Below are positions 3,911 through 10,341 of a stretch of 64,000 nt of DNA, piece after piece (within the stretch, counting starts at the first letter, position 1; every line of letters begins with the position of its first letter). The position numbers and the translations under genes are program-made. Source of the DNA: Asanoa ferruginea (GTDB lineage Bacteria > Actinomycetota > Actinomycetes > Mycobacteriales > Micromonosporaceae); contig NZ_QUMQ01000001.1 of the NCBI RefSeq assembly GCF_003387075.1, positions 5,766,001 through 5,830,000 on the forward strand, in the 5' to 3' direction. A model generated the notes under the pieces. That model did no database searches. It had not been told where the DNA came from and saw only the letters and a list, made by a program, of their open reading frames with translations.

Positions 3911-3985
3911 GGTAATCGTTTCCAGGTGTGTGCGCGAGAGGCGCGCTGTGGCGCGTCAGGAAAGGCCAGGCGGTAACGGTTTTCA
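3910..3985. promoter_or_regulatory. Repeated Zur-like half-palindromes upstream of the permease and His-repeat genes
   Basis: Two related 15-mers, CGGTAATCGTTTCCA at 3910-3924 and CGGTAACGGTTTTCA at 3971-3985, agree at 12 of 15 positions. Each keeps the right half of a Zur-type box (the second ends in TTTTCA). The left halves are degenerate, so the regulator is uncertain. They lie between the divergent permease gene and the His-repeat gene at 4068. Confidence 0.35.
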
Positions 3986-4039
3986 ACTTCGGGTGCGCGG
4001 TCAAGATGCGGAACCGCCGGATCGGTCCCGTTCGGGTGG

Positions 4040-4045
4040 GATAAT
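4040..4045 (+). promoter_or_regulatory. Possible -10 element for the His-repeat gene
   Basis: GATAAT matches TATAAT at 5 of 6 positions and sits 22 bases before the ATG. No good -35 element is visible at the expected distance. Confidence 0.3.
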
Positions 4046-4067
4046 TGGCTCATTGGGGGGTGGAGCC

Positions 4068-4520
4068 ATGTCGATCGACACCGAGCACCACACGCACGTC
4101 AAAGCCCATGAGCACATCCACGGCATCGACTGCGGCCACGAGGCCTTCGAACACGTCGGCCACATCGACTATCTGCACGACGGGCATCGCCACCACGCGC
4201 ACGACGGCCACTATGACGAGTGCTCCGCCGCGGCGCACGCCGACTCCGAGCCGCACCAGCACCAGCACAGCGAGAGCTGCGGCCACATCGGACTAGCGCA
4301 CGACGGGCACACCGACTATCTGCACGACGGCCACGCGCACAGCAAACACGGCGACCACTACGACGAATGCTCCGTCAGCGACCACGTCGAGGCGGAAACA
4401 CACACCCACATCCACGGCGACGGGTGCGGGCACGCCTCAGTGGCCCACGACGGGCACGTCGACTATCTCCACGAGGATCACCGACACGCTGCCCACGAGG
4501 GCCACTACGACGAGCACTGA
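4068..4520 (+). CDS. Histidine-rich three-repeat protein, putative metal-binding
   Basis: A 150-residue soluble protein starting at ATG 4068 with a strong GGGGGGTGGAG ribosome-binding site. About 40 residues are His. It is built from three tandem units of roughly 48 residues, each with the order CGH, then HDGHxDYLHDGH (a variant in unit three), then GHYDEC (unit two DHYDEC, unit three GHYDEH). It also has His-rich N-terminal HxH clusters. Short actinobacterial relatives with a single GHxDYLHDGH unit exist and are often loosely labelled zinc transporter permease, although this protein has no membrane segment. A role as a cytosolic zinc or nickel buffer or chaperone is inferred from composition and from the neighbouring metal transport genes. 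Confidence 0.75.
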   Translation: MSIDTEHHTHVKAHEHIHGIDCGHEAFEHVGHIDYLHDGHRHHAHDGHYDECSAAAHADSEPHQHQHSESCGHIGLAHDGHTDYLHDGHAHSKHGDHYDECSVSDHVEAETHTHIHGDGCGHASVAHDGHVDYLHEDHRHAAHEGHYDEH

Positions 4521-5391: not shown

Positions 5392-6537
5392 TTGAGCACT
5401 GAGACGAGCACCGACTATCGCGCCGCGTTGGAAGCTGTCATCGCGGGCACCATCGCGCCGGCGGCGGCCGAAGTGGACCGCGCGGGCACCTACCCGCGTG
5501 CCGCCCTCGACGCGCTCGGGGCGGCGGGCATCCTCGGCCTGCTGTCGGCGACCGAGGTAGGCGGCGGTGGTGGCACGCTCGGCGACGCGGCCGAGGTCAT
5601 CGAGCAGATCGCCGCGGCCTGCGGCTCGACCGCGATGGTCGTGTTGATGCACTACGCCGCGACCTGTGTGCTCGAGGCGCACGGCCCGCGCGAGGTGCGC
5701 GAGGCCATCGCTCGCGGTGAGCATGTCAGCAGTCTGGCGTTCTCCGAGGCCGGCTCGCGTAGCCACTTCTGGGCGCCGGTGAGCACGGCGACCGGCGACG
5801 GTGCCGTCGTCCGCCTCGACGCCCGCAAGAGTTGGATCACGTCGGCCGGCGAGGCCGACAGCTACGTGTGGTCGAGCCGGCCGCTGGCCGCCGACGGCCC
5901 GATGACGCTGTGGCTCGTCCCGGCGGATGCCGACGGGCTGCGGGTGGCCGGGCAGTTCGACGGGGTCGGCCTGCGCGGCAACGCGTCCAGGCCGGTGGTT
6001 GCCGAGGGCGTCGAGGTGCCGCGCGAGGCCATGCTCGGCGACGACGGAGCCGGCCTCGACATCGCGCTCGGCACGGCGCTGCCCGCCTTCCTGACCGGGA
6101 ACGCGGCGTTCTCCGTGGGGCTGACCACCGCGCTGCTCGACGAGGCGGCGACGCACCTGACCAACACGCGCCTGGAGCACCTCGACCAGACGCTCGCGGA
6201 GCAGCCGGTGGCGCGCGCCGAATACGCGCGGCTGCGTACCCGTGGGGATGAAGCCCGGGCCTTTCTCGCCGACACCCTCGGAGCGCTGGCCAGCGGTCGC
6301 GCCGACGCCACGTTGCGGGTGCTCCAGGTCAAGGCCGTCGCGTCGGAGGTCTCCTCCGAGGTCGCCGATGGCGTGATGCGCCTGTGTGGCGGTGCCGCCT
6401 TCCGCAAGGAACTCGGTGTCGAACGGCGCTTCCGCGACACGCTCGCCGCCCGGGTGATGGCACCGACGACGCCCGCGCTGCGCGACTTCGTCGGCCGGGC
6501 CACGCTCGGCCTGCCGCTGTTCGGAGGCCCACGGTGA
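5392..6537 (+). CDS. Acyl-CoA-dehydrogenase-like flavoprotein lacking the usual catalytic Glu motif
   Basis: A 381-residue protein of the acyl-CoA dehydrogenase superfamily (FAD-binding, N-terminal helical, middle beta and C-terminal helical domains). The start is a TTG at 5392, chosen because AGGAGG lies 7 bases upstream. The middle domain has SLAFSEAGSRSHF and the KSWITSAGEAD strand typical of the fold, and the C-terminal domain has RLCGGAAFRKELGVERRFRD. Where dehydrogenases normally read YxGTxE or MxGTxE, this protein reads VMAPTTPALRDF, so the usual base is missing. That pattern is seen in oxygenase-like or SfnB/DszC-like members. It is first in an operon whose next two genes overlap by four bases each. 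Activity on a sulphur compound is inference from the operon. Confidence 0.75.
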   Translation: MSTETSTDYRAALEAVIAGTIAPAAAEVDRAGTYPRAALDALGAAGILGLLSATEVGGGGGTLGDAAEVIEQIAAACGSTAMVVLMHYAATCVLEAHGPREVREAIARGEHVSSLAFSEAGSRSHFWAPVSTATGDGAVVRLDARKSWITSAGEADSYVWSSRPLAADGPMTLWLVPADADGLRVAGQFDGVGLRGNASRPVVAEGVEVPREAMLGDDGAGLDIALGTALPAFLTGNAAFSVGLTTALLDEAATHLTNTRLEHLDQTLAEQPVARAEYARLRTRGDEARAFLADTLGALASGRADATLRVLQVKAVASEVSSEVADGVMRLCGGAAFRKELGVERRFRDTLAARVMAPTTPALRDFVGRATLGLPLFGGPR

Positions 6538-7376
6538 CGCTGCTGATGGGTGCCGTCGCCTACGACCCGAAGGTCGTCACCATCTGGGAGGGCTTCCGGC
6601 GCTGGCTGCGCGACCGCGGGCTGCCCTTCGACTACCTGCTCTACTCCAACTACGAGCGGCAGGTCGAAGACCTGGTCGCCGGCCGCATCCACGCGGCGTG
6701 GAACTCACCGCTGGCGTGGGTGCGCGCCGAGCGCCTGGCCGCCGCGGAAGGCCGAGCGGTGCGGGCCGCCGTCATGCGCGACACCGACCGCGACCTGACG
6801 TCGGTGGTCGTGGTGCGCTCCGACTCGGATGTGCACTCGGCGACCGACCTGCGCGGCCGCACGGTCGCCGTGGGGGCGGTCGACTCGCCGCAGGCCACCC
6901 TGATCCCGCTGGCCCACCTGCGGGCGGCCGGGGCAGCCGACCTGACCGTCCGCCGGTTCGACATCGGCGTCGGGTTGCACGGCGACCATGTCGGTGGCGA
7001 GCGGGAGGCGGCCCGGGCGCTGGCGGCCGGCGAGGTCGACGCGGCGTGCATGATCGACGCCAACCACCTCGTGTTCTCGCGAGAGGGCACCCTCCCGCCG
7101 GGCAGCACCCGGATCGTGGCCCAGACGGCACCGTTCGACCACTGCAACATGACGCTCGTCGACACGGCACCCGCCGCGCTCGCGGACCGGTTCGTCGCAC
7201 TGCTGCTGTCCATGTCCTACGCCGACGAGGCTGTCCGCCCGCTGCTCGACCTCGAAGGGCTGAAGGTCTGGGAGCCGGGCCGGACCAGCGGCTACGCCCA
7301 GCTGGCCGACGCCGTCGACCAGGAGGGCTTCTACGACGCCAAGGGCCAGGTGACCGCGGCCGACTACACGCCATGA
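6534..7376 (+). CDS. PhnD/SsuA-like substrate-binding protein without a signal peptide
   Basis: A 280-residue protein starting at GTG 6534, which overlaps the stop of the flavoprotein (GTGA). It belongs to the PF12974-like (phosphonate, sulphonate or transferrin-type) periplasmic binding fold. Recognisable elements are YEROV-like YSNYERQVEDLVAGRIHAAW, the hinge strand DLRGRTVAVGAVDSPQA, and ALAAGEVDAACMID. It begins directly with the first strand of the fold (VTLLMGAVAYDP), with neither signal peptide nor lipobox, and no permease or ATPase lies nearby. It may therefore act in the cytosol as a sensor or enzyme-partner binding protein. The ligand is unknown. Its stop overlaps the next ATG. Confidence 0.75.
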   Translation: MTLLMGAVAYDPKVVTIWEGFRRWLRDRGLPFDYLLYSNYERQVEDLVAGRIHAAWNSPLAWVRAERLAAAEGRAVRAAVMRDTDRDLTSVVVVRSDSDVHSATDLRGRTVAVGAVDSPQATLIPLAHLRAAGAADLTVRRFDIGVGLHGDHVGGEREAARALAAGEVDAACMIDANHLVFSREGTLPPGSTRIVAQTAPFDHCNMTLVDTAPAALADRFVALLLSMSYADEAVRPLLDLEGLKVWEPGRTSGYAQLADAVDQEGFYDAKGQVTAADYTP

Positions 7377-8559
7377 CCGACGCGGGGCTCGACCTCGACC
7401 GGCTCGGCTTCGAAGCGGGCGCCCACATCCTGCTCGAACGCGCCCTGCGGGCCCTGCCGCCCGGTGGGCGACTGCGGGTCACCGGGCACGATCCGGCGCT
7501 GGCCGTGCACCTGCGCGGCTGGTGCCGGAGCCGGGGTCACGGGTTCGCCGTCGAGTCCGACGGCTGCGTGGTCTCGCTCGGCCAAGCCGCCGGCCTGCGG
7601 TGGATCGGCGCGCAACGGGCCGGCGGGCCGCGCCCAGACGGCATCGTCCGGCGGCCGCCGGCTCATTGGGGACTGGCGGCCCGTGGCGCGCTGGTCGAGG
7701 CCGGCGGGCCGACACCGCCCTGGTTCGACATCGCCGACCGCGACGTGGTCTGGGCCGACCTCGCGCCCCGGCTCTACGCGCACGCCGCGGCGGCACAGTG
7801 GGACCCGGCCGTCGCGGTCGACTGGTCGGCCGGCACCGACCTGCCCGCTGACATCGACGCGGCGGTCGTGCAGGTGATGACCTATCTCGTCGAGAACGAG
7901 CAGGCCGCCCTGGTCATCCCGGCCAGGCTGCTGGCCCGGATCCACCCGCACTTCCGCGAGGTGCAGCAGTTGCTCGCCGTGCAGGCGGCCGACGAGGCCC
8001 GGCACATCGAGGTCTTCACCCGGCGGGCGTTGCTGTCCGGCACCGAGCTGGGCACTTCGTCGGCGGGTGGGCGGGCATCGCTGACCAGCCTGCTCGCCGA
8101 GACCGACTTCTCGTTGGCGTCGTTCCTGCTCTCGGTCCTCGGCGAGGGCAGCTTCCTGGCGCTGCTCGGCTTTCTCGACGAGCACGCGCCGGACCCGGTC
8201 ACCCGCCAGGTCACCCGGTTGGCCCGGGTCGACGAGGCCCGCCACGTCGCCTTCGGGGTCGCCCACCTCGAGCACCAGGCGGCGCTGGACCCGACGCTGC
8301 GCGGTCGGCTGCGGGCCGCGGTCGAACGCCGCCACGACGCCCTGGTCGACACCGCCGGCCTCAACGCCGACGTCTTCGACGCCCTCGTCGTGCTCGCGGC
8401 AGGGGAGTGGACCGCGGCCGGGTCGCCCGCGGTTACCGCGCCGTGCAACGACTCCAGGCGGCGATGGACGACGGCCGCCGGCAGCGCCTCGAGCGGCTCG
8501 GCTTCCCGGCCGACGAGGCGGCGGAGCTGTCCGCACTGCACACCCGCAACTTCATGTGA
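7373..8559 (+). pseudogene. TusA-like domain fused to a ferritin-like diiron protein, one-base frameshift near the 3' end
   Basis: Starts at ATG 7373 (ATGA overlap). Residues about 8-70 align with TusA: LDRLG, then ALPPGGRLRVTGHDPA, then GWCRSRGHGF and the final beta strand. However, the LRCPEP motif reads FEAGAH, so the sulphur-carrying Cys is missing. Residues about 155-350 form a ferritin-like four-helix diiron bundle with Glu in ENEQAALV, EARH in ADEARHIEVF, Glu in LGEGSF and EARH in VDEARHVAFG. The reading frame leaves the conserved C-terminus at a GGG run (8420-8422). Adding one G restores VARGYRAVQ through to the terminal HTRNFM and a TGA at 8557. As written, the frame continues about 25 codons past that TGA, to 8635, with unrelated residues. 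Sequence error and real mutation are both possible. An oxidoreductase role is inferred. Confidence 0.7.
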
Positions 8560-8644
8560 CCAAGATCCGCCACTTCATGCGGTGTACGGCCGGTCCAGCG
8601 TCTCTTATGGTCTGGAGTTGCGGGGCTTAGCGTGAGGGGTCGAA

Positions 8645-9621: not shown

Positions 9622-10341
9622 TCAGGCGATCCCGGTCAGGAACAGCAGGGCGGCGGCGATCAGGCCGGCCTCGACGAGGATGACGAAGACCCGGTCGCTG
9701 ATCCGGGCGACCACCTTCTTGCCCGCCCACGCGCCGGCCAGCGTTGCCGGGGTCAGCGCCGCGCCCAACAGCAGCACCCGGCCGGTGAGCAGGTTCGCCG
9801 TGCCGTACGCGCCGATCTTCGCCGCGTGCATGAGCAGCGCGCACGCCGCCTCGGTGCCGATGAACACCGCGCGGGTGAGGCCCTTGGCCAGGAAGAAGGG
9901 TGCGGTCAGCGGGCCGACCGAGCCCAGCAGGGCCGAGCCGAGCCCGGAGGCGGCGCCCACGGCGATGAACGCGTTGTCCGACGGAGGTTTGGGCTGCCGG
10001 CGCAGGTGCCGCCAGAGCACGACGGCGATCAGGAAGACCCCGAGCAACCGTTTGAGCGGCTCCAGCGGGGCGTGGGCGAGCAGCAGCCCGCCGACGATCG
10101 CCAACGGGACGGCGCCGACGCTGAACCGGGCGATGAGGTGCCAGCGCAGGTGCTCGCGGTTGAACCAGACCCGGCCGCCGTTGCTGGCGATCTGGGTGAG
10201 GGTGAGCACCGGCACCGCCACCCGCAGGCCGAAGATGGCGGTGAACACCGGCAGCAGCAGCGCACCGCCGCCGAACCCGGCCACGGCCGACAGCAACGCC
10301 AGCAGGAACGCGGCCACCGTGGAGATGGCCAGCGCCGCCAT
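9622..10341 (-). CDS. TSUP (TauE/SafE) family membrane transporter
   Basis: A 239-residue polytopic membrane protein of the TauE/SafE family, which includes exporters of sulphite, sulphoacetate and related organosulphur anions. The N-terminal AGFGGGALLLPVF is the hallmark glycine-rich motif, repeated more weakly in the second half (ASGLGSALLGSVGPLTAPFFL). Its ATG at 10341 overlaps the TGA of the upstream TetR gene (TGATG), so the two are coupled. The substrate is not shown. Proximity to the possibly sulphur-related operon at 5392-8559 may be coincidental. Confidence 0.85.
   Translation of the reverse strand: MAALAISTVAAFLLALLSAVAGFGGGALLLPVFTAIFGLRVAVPVLTLTQIASNGGRVWFNREHLRWHLIARFSVGAVPLAIVGGLLLAHAPLEPLKRLLGVFLIAVVLWRHLRRQPKPPSDNAFIAVGAASGLGSALLGSVGPLTAPFFLAKGLTRAVFIGTEAACALLMHAAKIGAYGTANLLTGRVLLLGAALTPATLAGAWAGKKVVARISDRVFVILVEAGLIAAALLFLTGIA

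What the first reader, a model, noticed from the sequence alone, without database searches (positions are those of the whole stretch)
5392..8559. Undescribed-looking three-gene operon: acyl-CoA-dehydrogenase-like flavoprotein, cytosolic PhnD-like protein, TusA-diiron fusion
The genes overlap by four bases at each junction, so they are made together. The flavoprotein lacks the usual catalytic Glu motif (VMAPTTPALRDF). The binding protein has no signal peptide or transporter partners. The third protein joins a TusA-like domain to a ferritin-like diiron bundle. A flavin oxidase or oxygenase, a ligand-binding protein and a diiron oxidase together suggest oxidation of a sulphur- or phosphonate-containing metabolite. 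The TusA-like fold and the SfnB/DszC-like flavoprotein favour sulphur. Two-domain diiron oxidases with a lost TusA cysteine look like a repurposed sulphur-carrier or binding module.
Basis: partly seen in the sequence, partly recalled or inferred. Interest (0 to 1): 0.75.

Follow-up and report, generated by a model that had tools for sequence, protein, structure and literature searches.

The report
Selenium-linked three-gene oxidase operon
Three overlapping genes for a flavin enzyme, a small-molecule-binding protein and an iron oxygenase form a widespread bacterial unit that often sits beside, and sometimes inside, selenium-use gene runs, so it is probably an undescribed oxygen-using step in how bacteria obtain or handle selenium.

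Summary
The three overlapping genes are real, but gene 3 does not end at 8559 in its own frame: a frame break near 8415-8430 cuts off a tail kept by all 49 complete relatives aligned. The cassette occurs in several phyla; all three genes are neighbours in 69 of 76 loci. The sulphur/phosphonate reading is not supported. Selenium genes recur as neighbours: selA, selB, selD or tRNA-Sec lies within about 8 kb in 16 of 76 loci, some in runs such as selD-P1-P2-P3-selA-selB. SelD is found in 48 of 50 carrier genomes. In Streptomyces (genus inferred), 9 of 44 SelD-positive and 0 of 36 SelD-negative genomes carry gene 3. Most carriers have SelB; four without it have SelU, so the cassette tracks selenium use, not one end product. 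Best reading: an oxygen-dependent selenium supply or handling module upstream of SelD. The chemistry is inferred. Searches of an open-access library found no description. The window's own copy lies about 2.5 Mb from selD and may be broken.

The parts
5392..6537 (+). Gene 1 (P1): acyl-CoA-dehydrogenase-like flavoprotein without the catalytic Glu (TTG start assumed)
   Evidence: Pfam Acyl-CoA_dh_N/M/1 above cut-off; NCBIfam Rv1679_FadE16 363.7 bits, below its cut-off of 600; MAP invariant 37/37; A356 aligned to the Glu of IYEGT
6534..7376 (+). Gene 2 (P2): cytosolic PhnD/PtxB-fold binding protein with invariant His203-Cys204
7373..8635 (+). Gene 3 (P3) reading frame as it stands: TusA-like domain joined to an AurF/VlmB/R2lox-like diiron domain; the last ~70 codons are out of the family's frame
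   Evidence: AurF 4.1e-07 and TusA 7.2e-04 in Pfam
7391..7600 (+). TusA-like N-terminal domain of P3 without the sulphur-carrying Cys
   Evidence: 43-51% identity over about 40 residues to several TusA-type genes; CPxP absent; strand-helix-strand-helix-strand-strand order in the model of a relative
7745..8422 (+). Diiron domain of P3: E176, E208xxH211, E258, E288xxH291
8415..8430 (.). Approximate place of the frame break in gene 3
   Evidence: Relatives continue in one frame; window does not
8423..8559 (+). Conserved C-terminal region (ending HTRNFM) lying in a different frame from the rest of gene 3
   Evidence: HTxNFM ends 49 of 49 complete members of A1

Best explanation
The three genes are a selenium-metabolism cassette, most likely on the supply side of SelD in bacteria that live with oxygen. 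Shown: the genes stay together across phyla, co-occur with SelD, lie in some lineages within sel gene runs, and keep the metal ligands and specific invariant residues. Inferred: the base-less flavoprotein (P1) and the diiron enzyme (P3) carry out oxygen-dependent steps that free or convert selenium from an organic or oxidised selenium compound; the cytosolic PhnD-fold protein (P2) binds the selenium-bearing anion (a selenium oxyanion or selenophosphate, which resembles the phosphite and phosphonates its relatives bind), possibly through the invariant His-Cys pair; the TusA-like domain of P3, having lost its Cys, is a docking module, and the conserved flexible C-terminal tail docks P3 to a partner, as the R2 tail does in ribonucleotide reductase (recalled). 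SelD then makes selenophosphate for whatever end product the host uses (selenocysteine or selenouridine).
For: Neighbours: of ten recurrent neighbour clusters scanned, seven had Pfam matches: SelD-type, SelA, SelB, three formate dehydrogenase subunit types and a generic ABC ATPase. tRNA-Sec in 12 of 80 loci; selA/selB/selD or tRNA-Sec in 16 of 76 family loci, 1.15 Mb in all. Same-strand runs: selD-P1-P2-P3-selA-selB (L133), selD-P1-P2-P3-selA (L055), selA-selB-selD-P1-P2-P3 (L045, L052), selD-selA-selB-P1-P2-P3 (L132), P1-P2-P3-selD (L079), selA-selB-P1-P2-P3-selD (L082). Co-occurrence: SelD in 48 of 50 carrier genomes; Streptomyces 9 of 44 SelD-positive against 0 of 36 SelD-negative (Fisher p 0.0035, relatedness ignored); in 7 of those 9 gene 3 lies within 15 kb of selD (positions). 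Independence of end product: SelB above cut-off in 42 of 55 and six more just below it near selD; SelU in 16 of 55, including four SelB-less genomes of Nitrosomonadaceae and Massilia. Chemistry: diiron ligands 50/50, P2 His-Cys 47/47, P3 tail 49/49; folds. All 47 P2 members also match the 'putative selenate' SBP model TIGR04553 (best 4.7e-30), though all 47 match Rv1680 better and PhnD-type models too.
Against: No substrate, product or expression datum. 60 of 76 loci show no sel gene in the stretch held (some stretches are short), and the window's own cassette is about 2.5 Mb from its selD. SelD is common anyway in the broad actinobacterial sample: 8 of 9 gene-3 carriers against 194 of 296 overall, not telling on its own. 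Most SelD-positive Streptomyces (35 of 44) lack the cassette. One carrier (Saccharothrix, L057) has no SelD, SelB or SelU match. Two of the four SelB-less carriers are MAGs, where absence is weak. Oxidation is an odd way to feed a pathway that needs selenide. P1 is missing from the stretch in 5 of 76 loci and about 1.5 kb off on the other strand in one, and a Miltoncostaea plasmid has P1-P2 near selD with no P3 match on that plasmid.
Confidence: 0.52

Rival explanations
1. Consumer, not supplier: the cassette uses selenophosphate made by SelD to build a new selenium metabolite or cofactor. P2 binds selenophosphate and the oxidases tailor the product.
For: Tracks SelD rather than SelB or SelU; P2 fold binds phosphite and phosphonates in its relatives; invariant His-Cys in P2.
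Against: Nearly every carrier also has a known selenium end product: of the 50, only the Saccharothrix genome (no SelD either) and one draft (G063, with fdhA next to selD on an 8.9-kb contig) lack both SelB and SelU, and one more (G082) shows only a SelB fragment; a consumer should often occur with SelD alone. Interleaving between selD and selA-selB fits supply better.
Confidence: 0.22
2. A module for the selenocysteine formate dehydrogenase or for protecting selenium enzymes from oxygen: the diiron protein removes oxygen or matures the enzyme.
For: Formate dehydrogenase genes lie next to the cassette in several loci.
Against: Four carriers with no SelB match, hence probably no selenocysteine enzymes, keep the cassette and have SelU (two of them are MAGs); several cassettes sit with sel genes and no fdh match in the stretch held (L055, L059, L060, L079).
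Confidence: 0.1
3. One reading: oxidation of an organosulphur or phosphonate compound, with the selenium link incidental.
For: P1 has weak similarity to SfnB, DszC and the sulfinopropanoyl-CoA desulfinase; P2 has a phosphonate-binding fold; TusA-like domain.
Against: None of the ten recurrent neighbour clusters scanned is a sulphur or phosphonate family; SelD co-occurrence within one genus; cassette in sel gene runs.
Confidence: 0.06

Closest known systems
YedE / YedF / DUF3343 / LysR_Se selenium candidates (Lin et al. 2015, PMC5322559; abstract, section 9 part 1 and passages read)
   Same: Predicted from gene neighbourhood and SelD co-occurrence to act in selenium transport, redox or trafficking; YedF also has a SirA/TusA-like domain.
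   Different: No flavoprotein, binding protein or diiron enzyme; YedF is said to hold a CPXP motif, P3 does not. A term count in the main text gave 0 for acyl-CoA, phosphonate, ferritin and TusA.
Mycobacterial Rv1679-Rv1680(-Rv1681) families (NCBIfam NF049984, NF049985, NF049973)
   Same: P1 and P2 belong to the same superfamilies (363.7 and 219 bits); the Rv1681 radical SAM model has an N-terminal stretch weakly similar to P3's TusA-like domain (best E 0.0035, 1 of 50 members; 2 of 10 N-terminal pieces at E 0.0098 and 0.17).
   Different: Well below the curated cut-offs (600 and 400); Rv1681 is named a radical SAM protein, not a diiron protein. That Rv1679-1681 are neighbours is recalled from gene numbering, not tested.
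AurF/VlmB N-oxygenases, aldehyde-deformylating oxygenases, R2-like ligand-binding oxidases
   Same: Diiron helical bundle and ligand pattern.
   Different: P3 adds a TusA-like domain and a conserved HTxNFM tail; about 15-20% identity in the structural alignments listed; far below the R2lox NCBIfam cut-offs where shown.
PhnD / PtxB / AioX / ArrX binding proteins
   Same: Fold and tetrahedral-anion-binding superfamily; S118 and H149 align with the first Ser of the STS loop and a His of PtxB (ligand roles recalled).
   Different: No signal peptide, no transporter partner seen, invariant His-Cys.
SenABC selenoneine pathway (recalled)
   Same: SelD-linked selenium chemistry in aerobes (recalled).
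   Different: None of the three proteins belongs to it as far as I recall; not searched for here.

Membership tests
TusA sulfurtransferase | CPxP motif with sulphur-carrying Cys | tested here: not met
   TusA-type hits read RCPLPV (window numbering GFEAGA in P3); no Cys column there in the 50 sequences of A1
TusA sulfurtransferase | Sequence similarity of the domain | tested here: met
   43-51% over about 40 residues in several TusA-type genes; 30 of 50 members match Pfam TusA at E<=0.01, below its cut-off in the two members shown individually
TusA sulfurtransferase | TusA fold | tested here: inconclusive
   Secondary-structure order fits; no separate fold search of the domain, and one search covers mainly residues 92-392
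AurF/VlmB/R2lox-type diiron oxygenases | E, ExxH, E, ExxH ligand set in a helical core | tested here: met
AurF/VlmB/R2lox-type diiron oxygenases | Family-level score and substrate | tested here: inconclusive
   AurF Pfam 29.9 bits against cut-off 29.6; R2lox model 25.5 against 315; substrate not testable here
Acyl-CoA dehydrogenase | Three-domain ACAD fold by profile | tested here: met
   N, middle and C-terminal Pfam domains over cut-off
Acyl-CoA dehydrogenase | Catalytic Glu in the YEGT loop | tested here: not met
   Ala at that place; MAP invariant 37/37. An alternative base elsewhere was not tested
SfnB or DszC sulphur flavoenzymes | NCBIfam equivalog cut-off | tested here: not met
   73.7 against 430.9 and 48.1 against 850 bits
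PhnD transporter binding protein | Signal peptide | tested here: not met
   Strand 1 of the model starts at residue 3; no signal-peptide predictor was run
PhnD transporter binding protein | ABC transporter partner genes | tested here: inconclusive
   No ABC domain in the three window neighbours scanned; a generic ABC ATPase family occurs in 13 of the 85 loci compared, not as a fixed neighbour
Selenium metabolism (SelD-dependent) | Co-occurrence with SelD | tested here: met
   48 of 50; 9/44 against 0/36 in Streptomyces; not significant in the broad actinobacterial sample
Selenium metabolism (SelD-dependent) | Shared gene runs with sel genes in unrelated lineages | tested here: met
   Actinomycetota and Betaproteobacteria; 16 of 76 loci
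Selenium metabolism (SelD-dependent) | Biochemical or genetic dependence on selenium | not testable with these tools
   No experiment possible
Rv1679 / Rv1680 NCBIfam families | Curated score cut-off | tested here: not met
   363.7 of 600 and 219.2 of 400 bits

The most novel reading that the evidence does not exclude
This is a previously undescribed oxygen-dependent selenium assimilation route: a flavin enzyme plus a diiron oxygenase release selenium from an organoselenium compound, and a cytosolic PhnD-fold protein with an invariant His-Cys pair serves as the dedicated carrier that hands the selenium anion to, or selenophosphate from, SelD. It would be the aerobic counterpart of the YedE/YedF set.
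Probability: 0.3. Interest if true: 0.92.

Novelty: categorically new. Interest (0 to 1): 0.8.

Why it matters
[quoted passage not shown] A conserved three-gene unit that follows SelD across phyla, irrespective of whether selenium ends in selenocysteine or selenouridine, is a concrete candidate for that missing step and makes the question testable by gene deletion and binding assays. It would also be, to my knowledge (recalled), the first flavin/diiron chemistry tied to selenium use.

Tried and rejected
Considered and set aside. (1) Sulphur or phosphonate metabolism: none of the ten recurrent neighbour clusters scanned (of 38 rows listed) is of that kind; the other rows were not scanned, several being antisense or shadow frames in my judgement. 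(2) Conserved local context of the window: ten window neighbours, among them the TauE-type permease at 9622, were compared with the ORFs of the 85 loci; apart from the window's own locus L006 there were hits only in L053 (two neighbours) and L091 (one). (3) Formate dehydrogenase maturation: carriers without a SelB match exist. (4) Selenouridine only: no SelU match in the actinobacterial carriers. (5) The broad actinobacterial sample gave no telling excess of SelD. Its one SelD-lacking carrier, G199, is a 33% relative with no P1 or P2 match in the 18 kb fetched, so I treat it as a paralogue; of the other seven non-window carriers only G208 was checked for P1 and P2. (6) Distant relatives L112-L115 (30-35%) have no P1 or P2 match and were left out of the 76. 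(7) HHalign of P3 against the radical SAM/SPASM and DUF2515 proteins of L136 found nothing. (8) P3 in plasmids: no match at 1e-20, two weak partial matches at 1e-3. (9) The ABC ATPase family seen in 13 loci is a common superfamily; taken as chance. (10) The TusA-like domain had no fold search of its own. (11) Literature: Rv1679/FadE16 gave seven papers (listing only, one of them plainly unrelated) and none with Rv1679 and Rv1680 together. (12) Fisher test of 48/50 against the actinobacterial sample was computed but is not used, as the two sets differ in make-up.
Full report
WHAT IS THERE. Window 5392-8635 (+) holds three genes overlapping by four bases at each junction: P1 (5392-6537; TTG start assumed), P2 (GTG, 6534-7376) and P3 (ATG, 7373-8635 as read). 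P1 matches acyl-CoA-dehydrogenase N, middle and C-terminal Pfam domains; P2 matches Phosphonate-bd (8.8e-32); P3 matches AurF (4.1e-07) and, weakly, TusA (7.2e-04). The host genome is one 9.07-Mb contig and the window is its bases 5,766,001-5,830,000.

THE FRAME BREAK. Relatives end in GFPxDEAAELSALHTRNFM or similar; the window has that ending in another frame, and its own frame runs on to 8635. Codon-position GC in the P3 frame is 0.81/0.52/0.93 for 7373-8410 and 0.50/0.89/0.80 for 8423-8560. The same-genus relative L007 and three further relatives (L008-L010) are unbroken. HTxNFM ends all 49 complete members of alignment A1; the window row, cut at 8422, is the fiftieth. So this copy is either a recent mutant or carries an assembly error.

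A CONSERVED UNIT. Leaving out four distant relatives (L112-L115), P2 is adjacent in 75 of 76 loci and both P1 and P2 in 69 of 76 (same strand, stops within 4.5 kb). Of the seven others, L068 begins inside P3, L057 has P1 about 1.5 kb beyond P3 on the other strand, and five (L040, L041, L073, L095, L110) have no P1 in the stretch held. Campylobacterota keep the trio in the order P3-P1-P2 at 29-35% identity. The cassette is patchy: among six genomes of the window's genus only the window's and one other have a near full-length match.

THE SELENIUM LINK: NEIGHBOURHOOD. Clustering all ORFs of the loci gave 38 recurrent clusters, the trio and shadow frames included. Of ten representatives scanned, seven had Pfam matches: AIR-synthase type (SelD), SelA, SelB, molybdopterin, 4Fe-4S and NrfD subunits of formate dehydrogenase type, and an ABC ATPase; three had none. 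tRNA-Sec lies in 12 of 80 loci. selA, selB, selD or tRNA-Sec lies in 16 of 76 family loci, which together hold 1.15 Mb; with formate dehydrogenase genes, 18 of 76.

THE SELENIUM LINK: CO-OCCURRENCE. SelD (TIGR00476 over cut-off) is found in 48 of 50 carrier genomes given to (50 of 76 loci were given). The two without are a deltaproteobacterial MAG (L070), which has SelB and SelU, and Saccharothrix (L057), which has none of the three. In a 61-genome set of relatives the five near full-length carriers all have SelD, against 38 of 61 overall. In an actinobacterial sample 8 of 9 carriers have SelD against 194 of 296, which is not telling by itself. The best-matched test is within Streptomyces (genus inferred): SelD in 44 of 246 genomes; P3 (E<=1e-40) in 9 of the 44 and in 0 of 36 of the 202 SelD-negative genomes (Fisher p 0.0035, ignoring relatedness). 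In 7 of those 9, P3 and selD lie on one contig within 15 kb; in the other two they are 158 kb apart and on different contigs (positions). Conversely 35 of the 44 SelD-positive genomes lack P3, so the cassette is an accessory, not a requirement, of selenium use.

WHICH SELENIUM TRAIT. SelB is over cut-off in 42 of 55 carriers (one genome counted twice); six more score 228-241.5 bits (cut-off 242.25) and lie within 9 kb of selD. One (G082) has only a fragment. Six have only EF-Tu-like scores: G063, G079, G094, G097, G105, G106. The last four, two Nitrosomonadaceae MAGs and two Massilia, all have SelU; SelU is present in 16 of 55. G063 is a draft with fdhA beside selD on an 8.9-kb contig. The cassette therefore follows SelD-dependent selenium use in general, not one end product. 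That favours a role upstream of, or at, SelD; it does not prove it.

WHAT IS KNOWN. Lin et al. 2015 (PMC5322559: abstract, section 9 part 1, passages) name YedE, YedF, LysR_Se and DUF3343. Peng et al. 2016 (PMC5029168: section 12, figures and tables section, passages) name an isochorismatase-like protein, an ABC ATPase and a cysteine-desulfurase-like protein beside orphan selD; its main text has 0 occurrences of acyl-CoA, phosphonate and ferritin. Term counts in the main texts of the 2022 review (PMC9312934: acyl-CoA 0, phosphonate 0), the 2026 review (PMC13188914: YedF 0, TusA 0) and the Epsilonproteobacteria paper (PMC4607533: acyl-CoA 0, phosphonate 0, TusA 0) give no sign of the trio; of these three only passages were read. 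PMC7176365 (passages) reports selenium-dependent formate oxidation in an aerobic actinobacterium; the trio is not mentioned in the passages shown. Ten full-text searches listed no paper that describes it; the library is open-access only, so absence is not proof. I rate the system categorically new because I know of no described flavin/binding-protein/diiron unit in selenium metabolism; each protein on its own belongs to a known superfamily.

VARIATION WORTH NOTING. A Miltoncostaea oceani megaplasmid carries selA-selD and, about 6 kb on and on the other strand, P1-P2 (P2 65.6% identical) followed by DUF2515 and a radical SAM/SPASM gene, with no P3 match in that record; an Rv1681-family radical SAM gene lies between. 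The Rv1681 model shows weak N-terminal similarity to P3's TusA-like domain. The flavoprotein/binding-protein pair may therefore work with different third partners.

VERDICT. Observation partly confirmed, first interpretation partly supported, selenium link strong, supply role probable, chemistry open.

Noticed in passing
window 8415-8430: Gene 3 loses the family's reading frame just before its conserved C-terminal region; the same-genus relative L007 is intact.
   Followed up: partly
L136:7844-11844 (Miltoncostaea oceani plasmid NZ_CP064357.1): P1-P2 near selA-selD but followed by DUF2515 and a radical SAM/SPASM gene instead of P3; an Rv1681-family radical SAM gene and glycosyltransferase genes, one of them close to an arsenosugar-type model, lie between.
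   Followed up: partly
L127:701-2878: SelD of a Nitrosomonas MAG is fused to an N-terminal pyridine-nucleotide-disulphide oxidoreductase.
   Followed up: no
window 3956-4520: Open frame with several His-rich near-repeats; looks like a metal-binding repeat protein. A lipoprotein resembling a zinc ABC binding protein lies at 36-992 (resemblance recalled, neither was scanned).
   Followed up: no
window 9622-10341 (-): TauE/SafE-family permease (Pfam 1.6e-28) downstream of the cassette; no match among the ORFs of the other cassette loci.
   Followed up: yes
G000:C1:8240355-8243096 (L131): The host has selB and selD side by side and formate dehydrogenase genes about 7 kb on, far from the window's cassette.
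   Followed up: partly
L135:8299-9420: Distant P3 relative (33-36%) in a genome without a SelD match, with no P1/P2 match in the stretch fetched and a 4Fe-4S protein gene next to it: probably a paralogue with another role.
   Followed up: partly
L037:9356-9949: A second stretch similar to P1 (30%) just downstream of the cassette in Actinomadura litoris.
   Followed up: no
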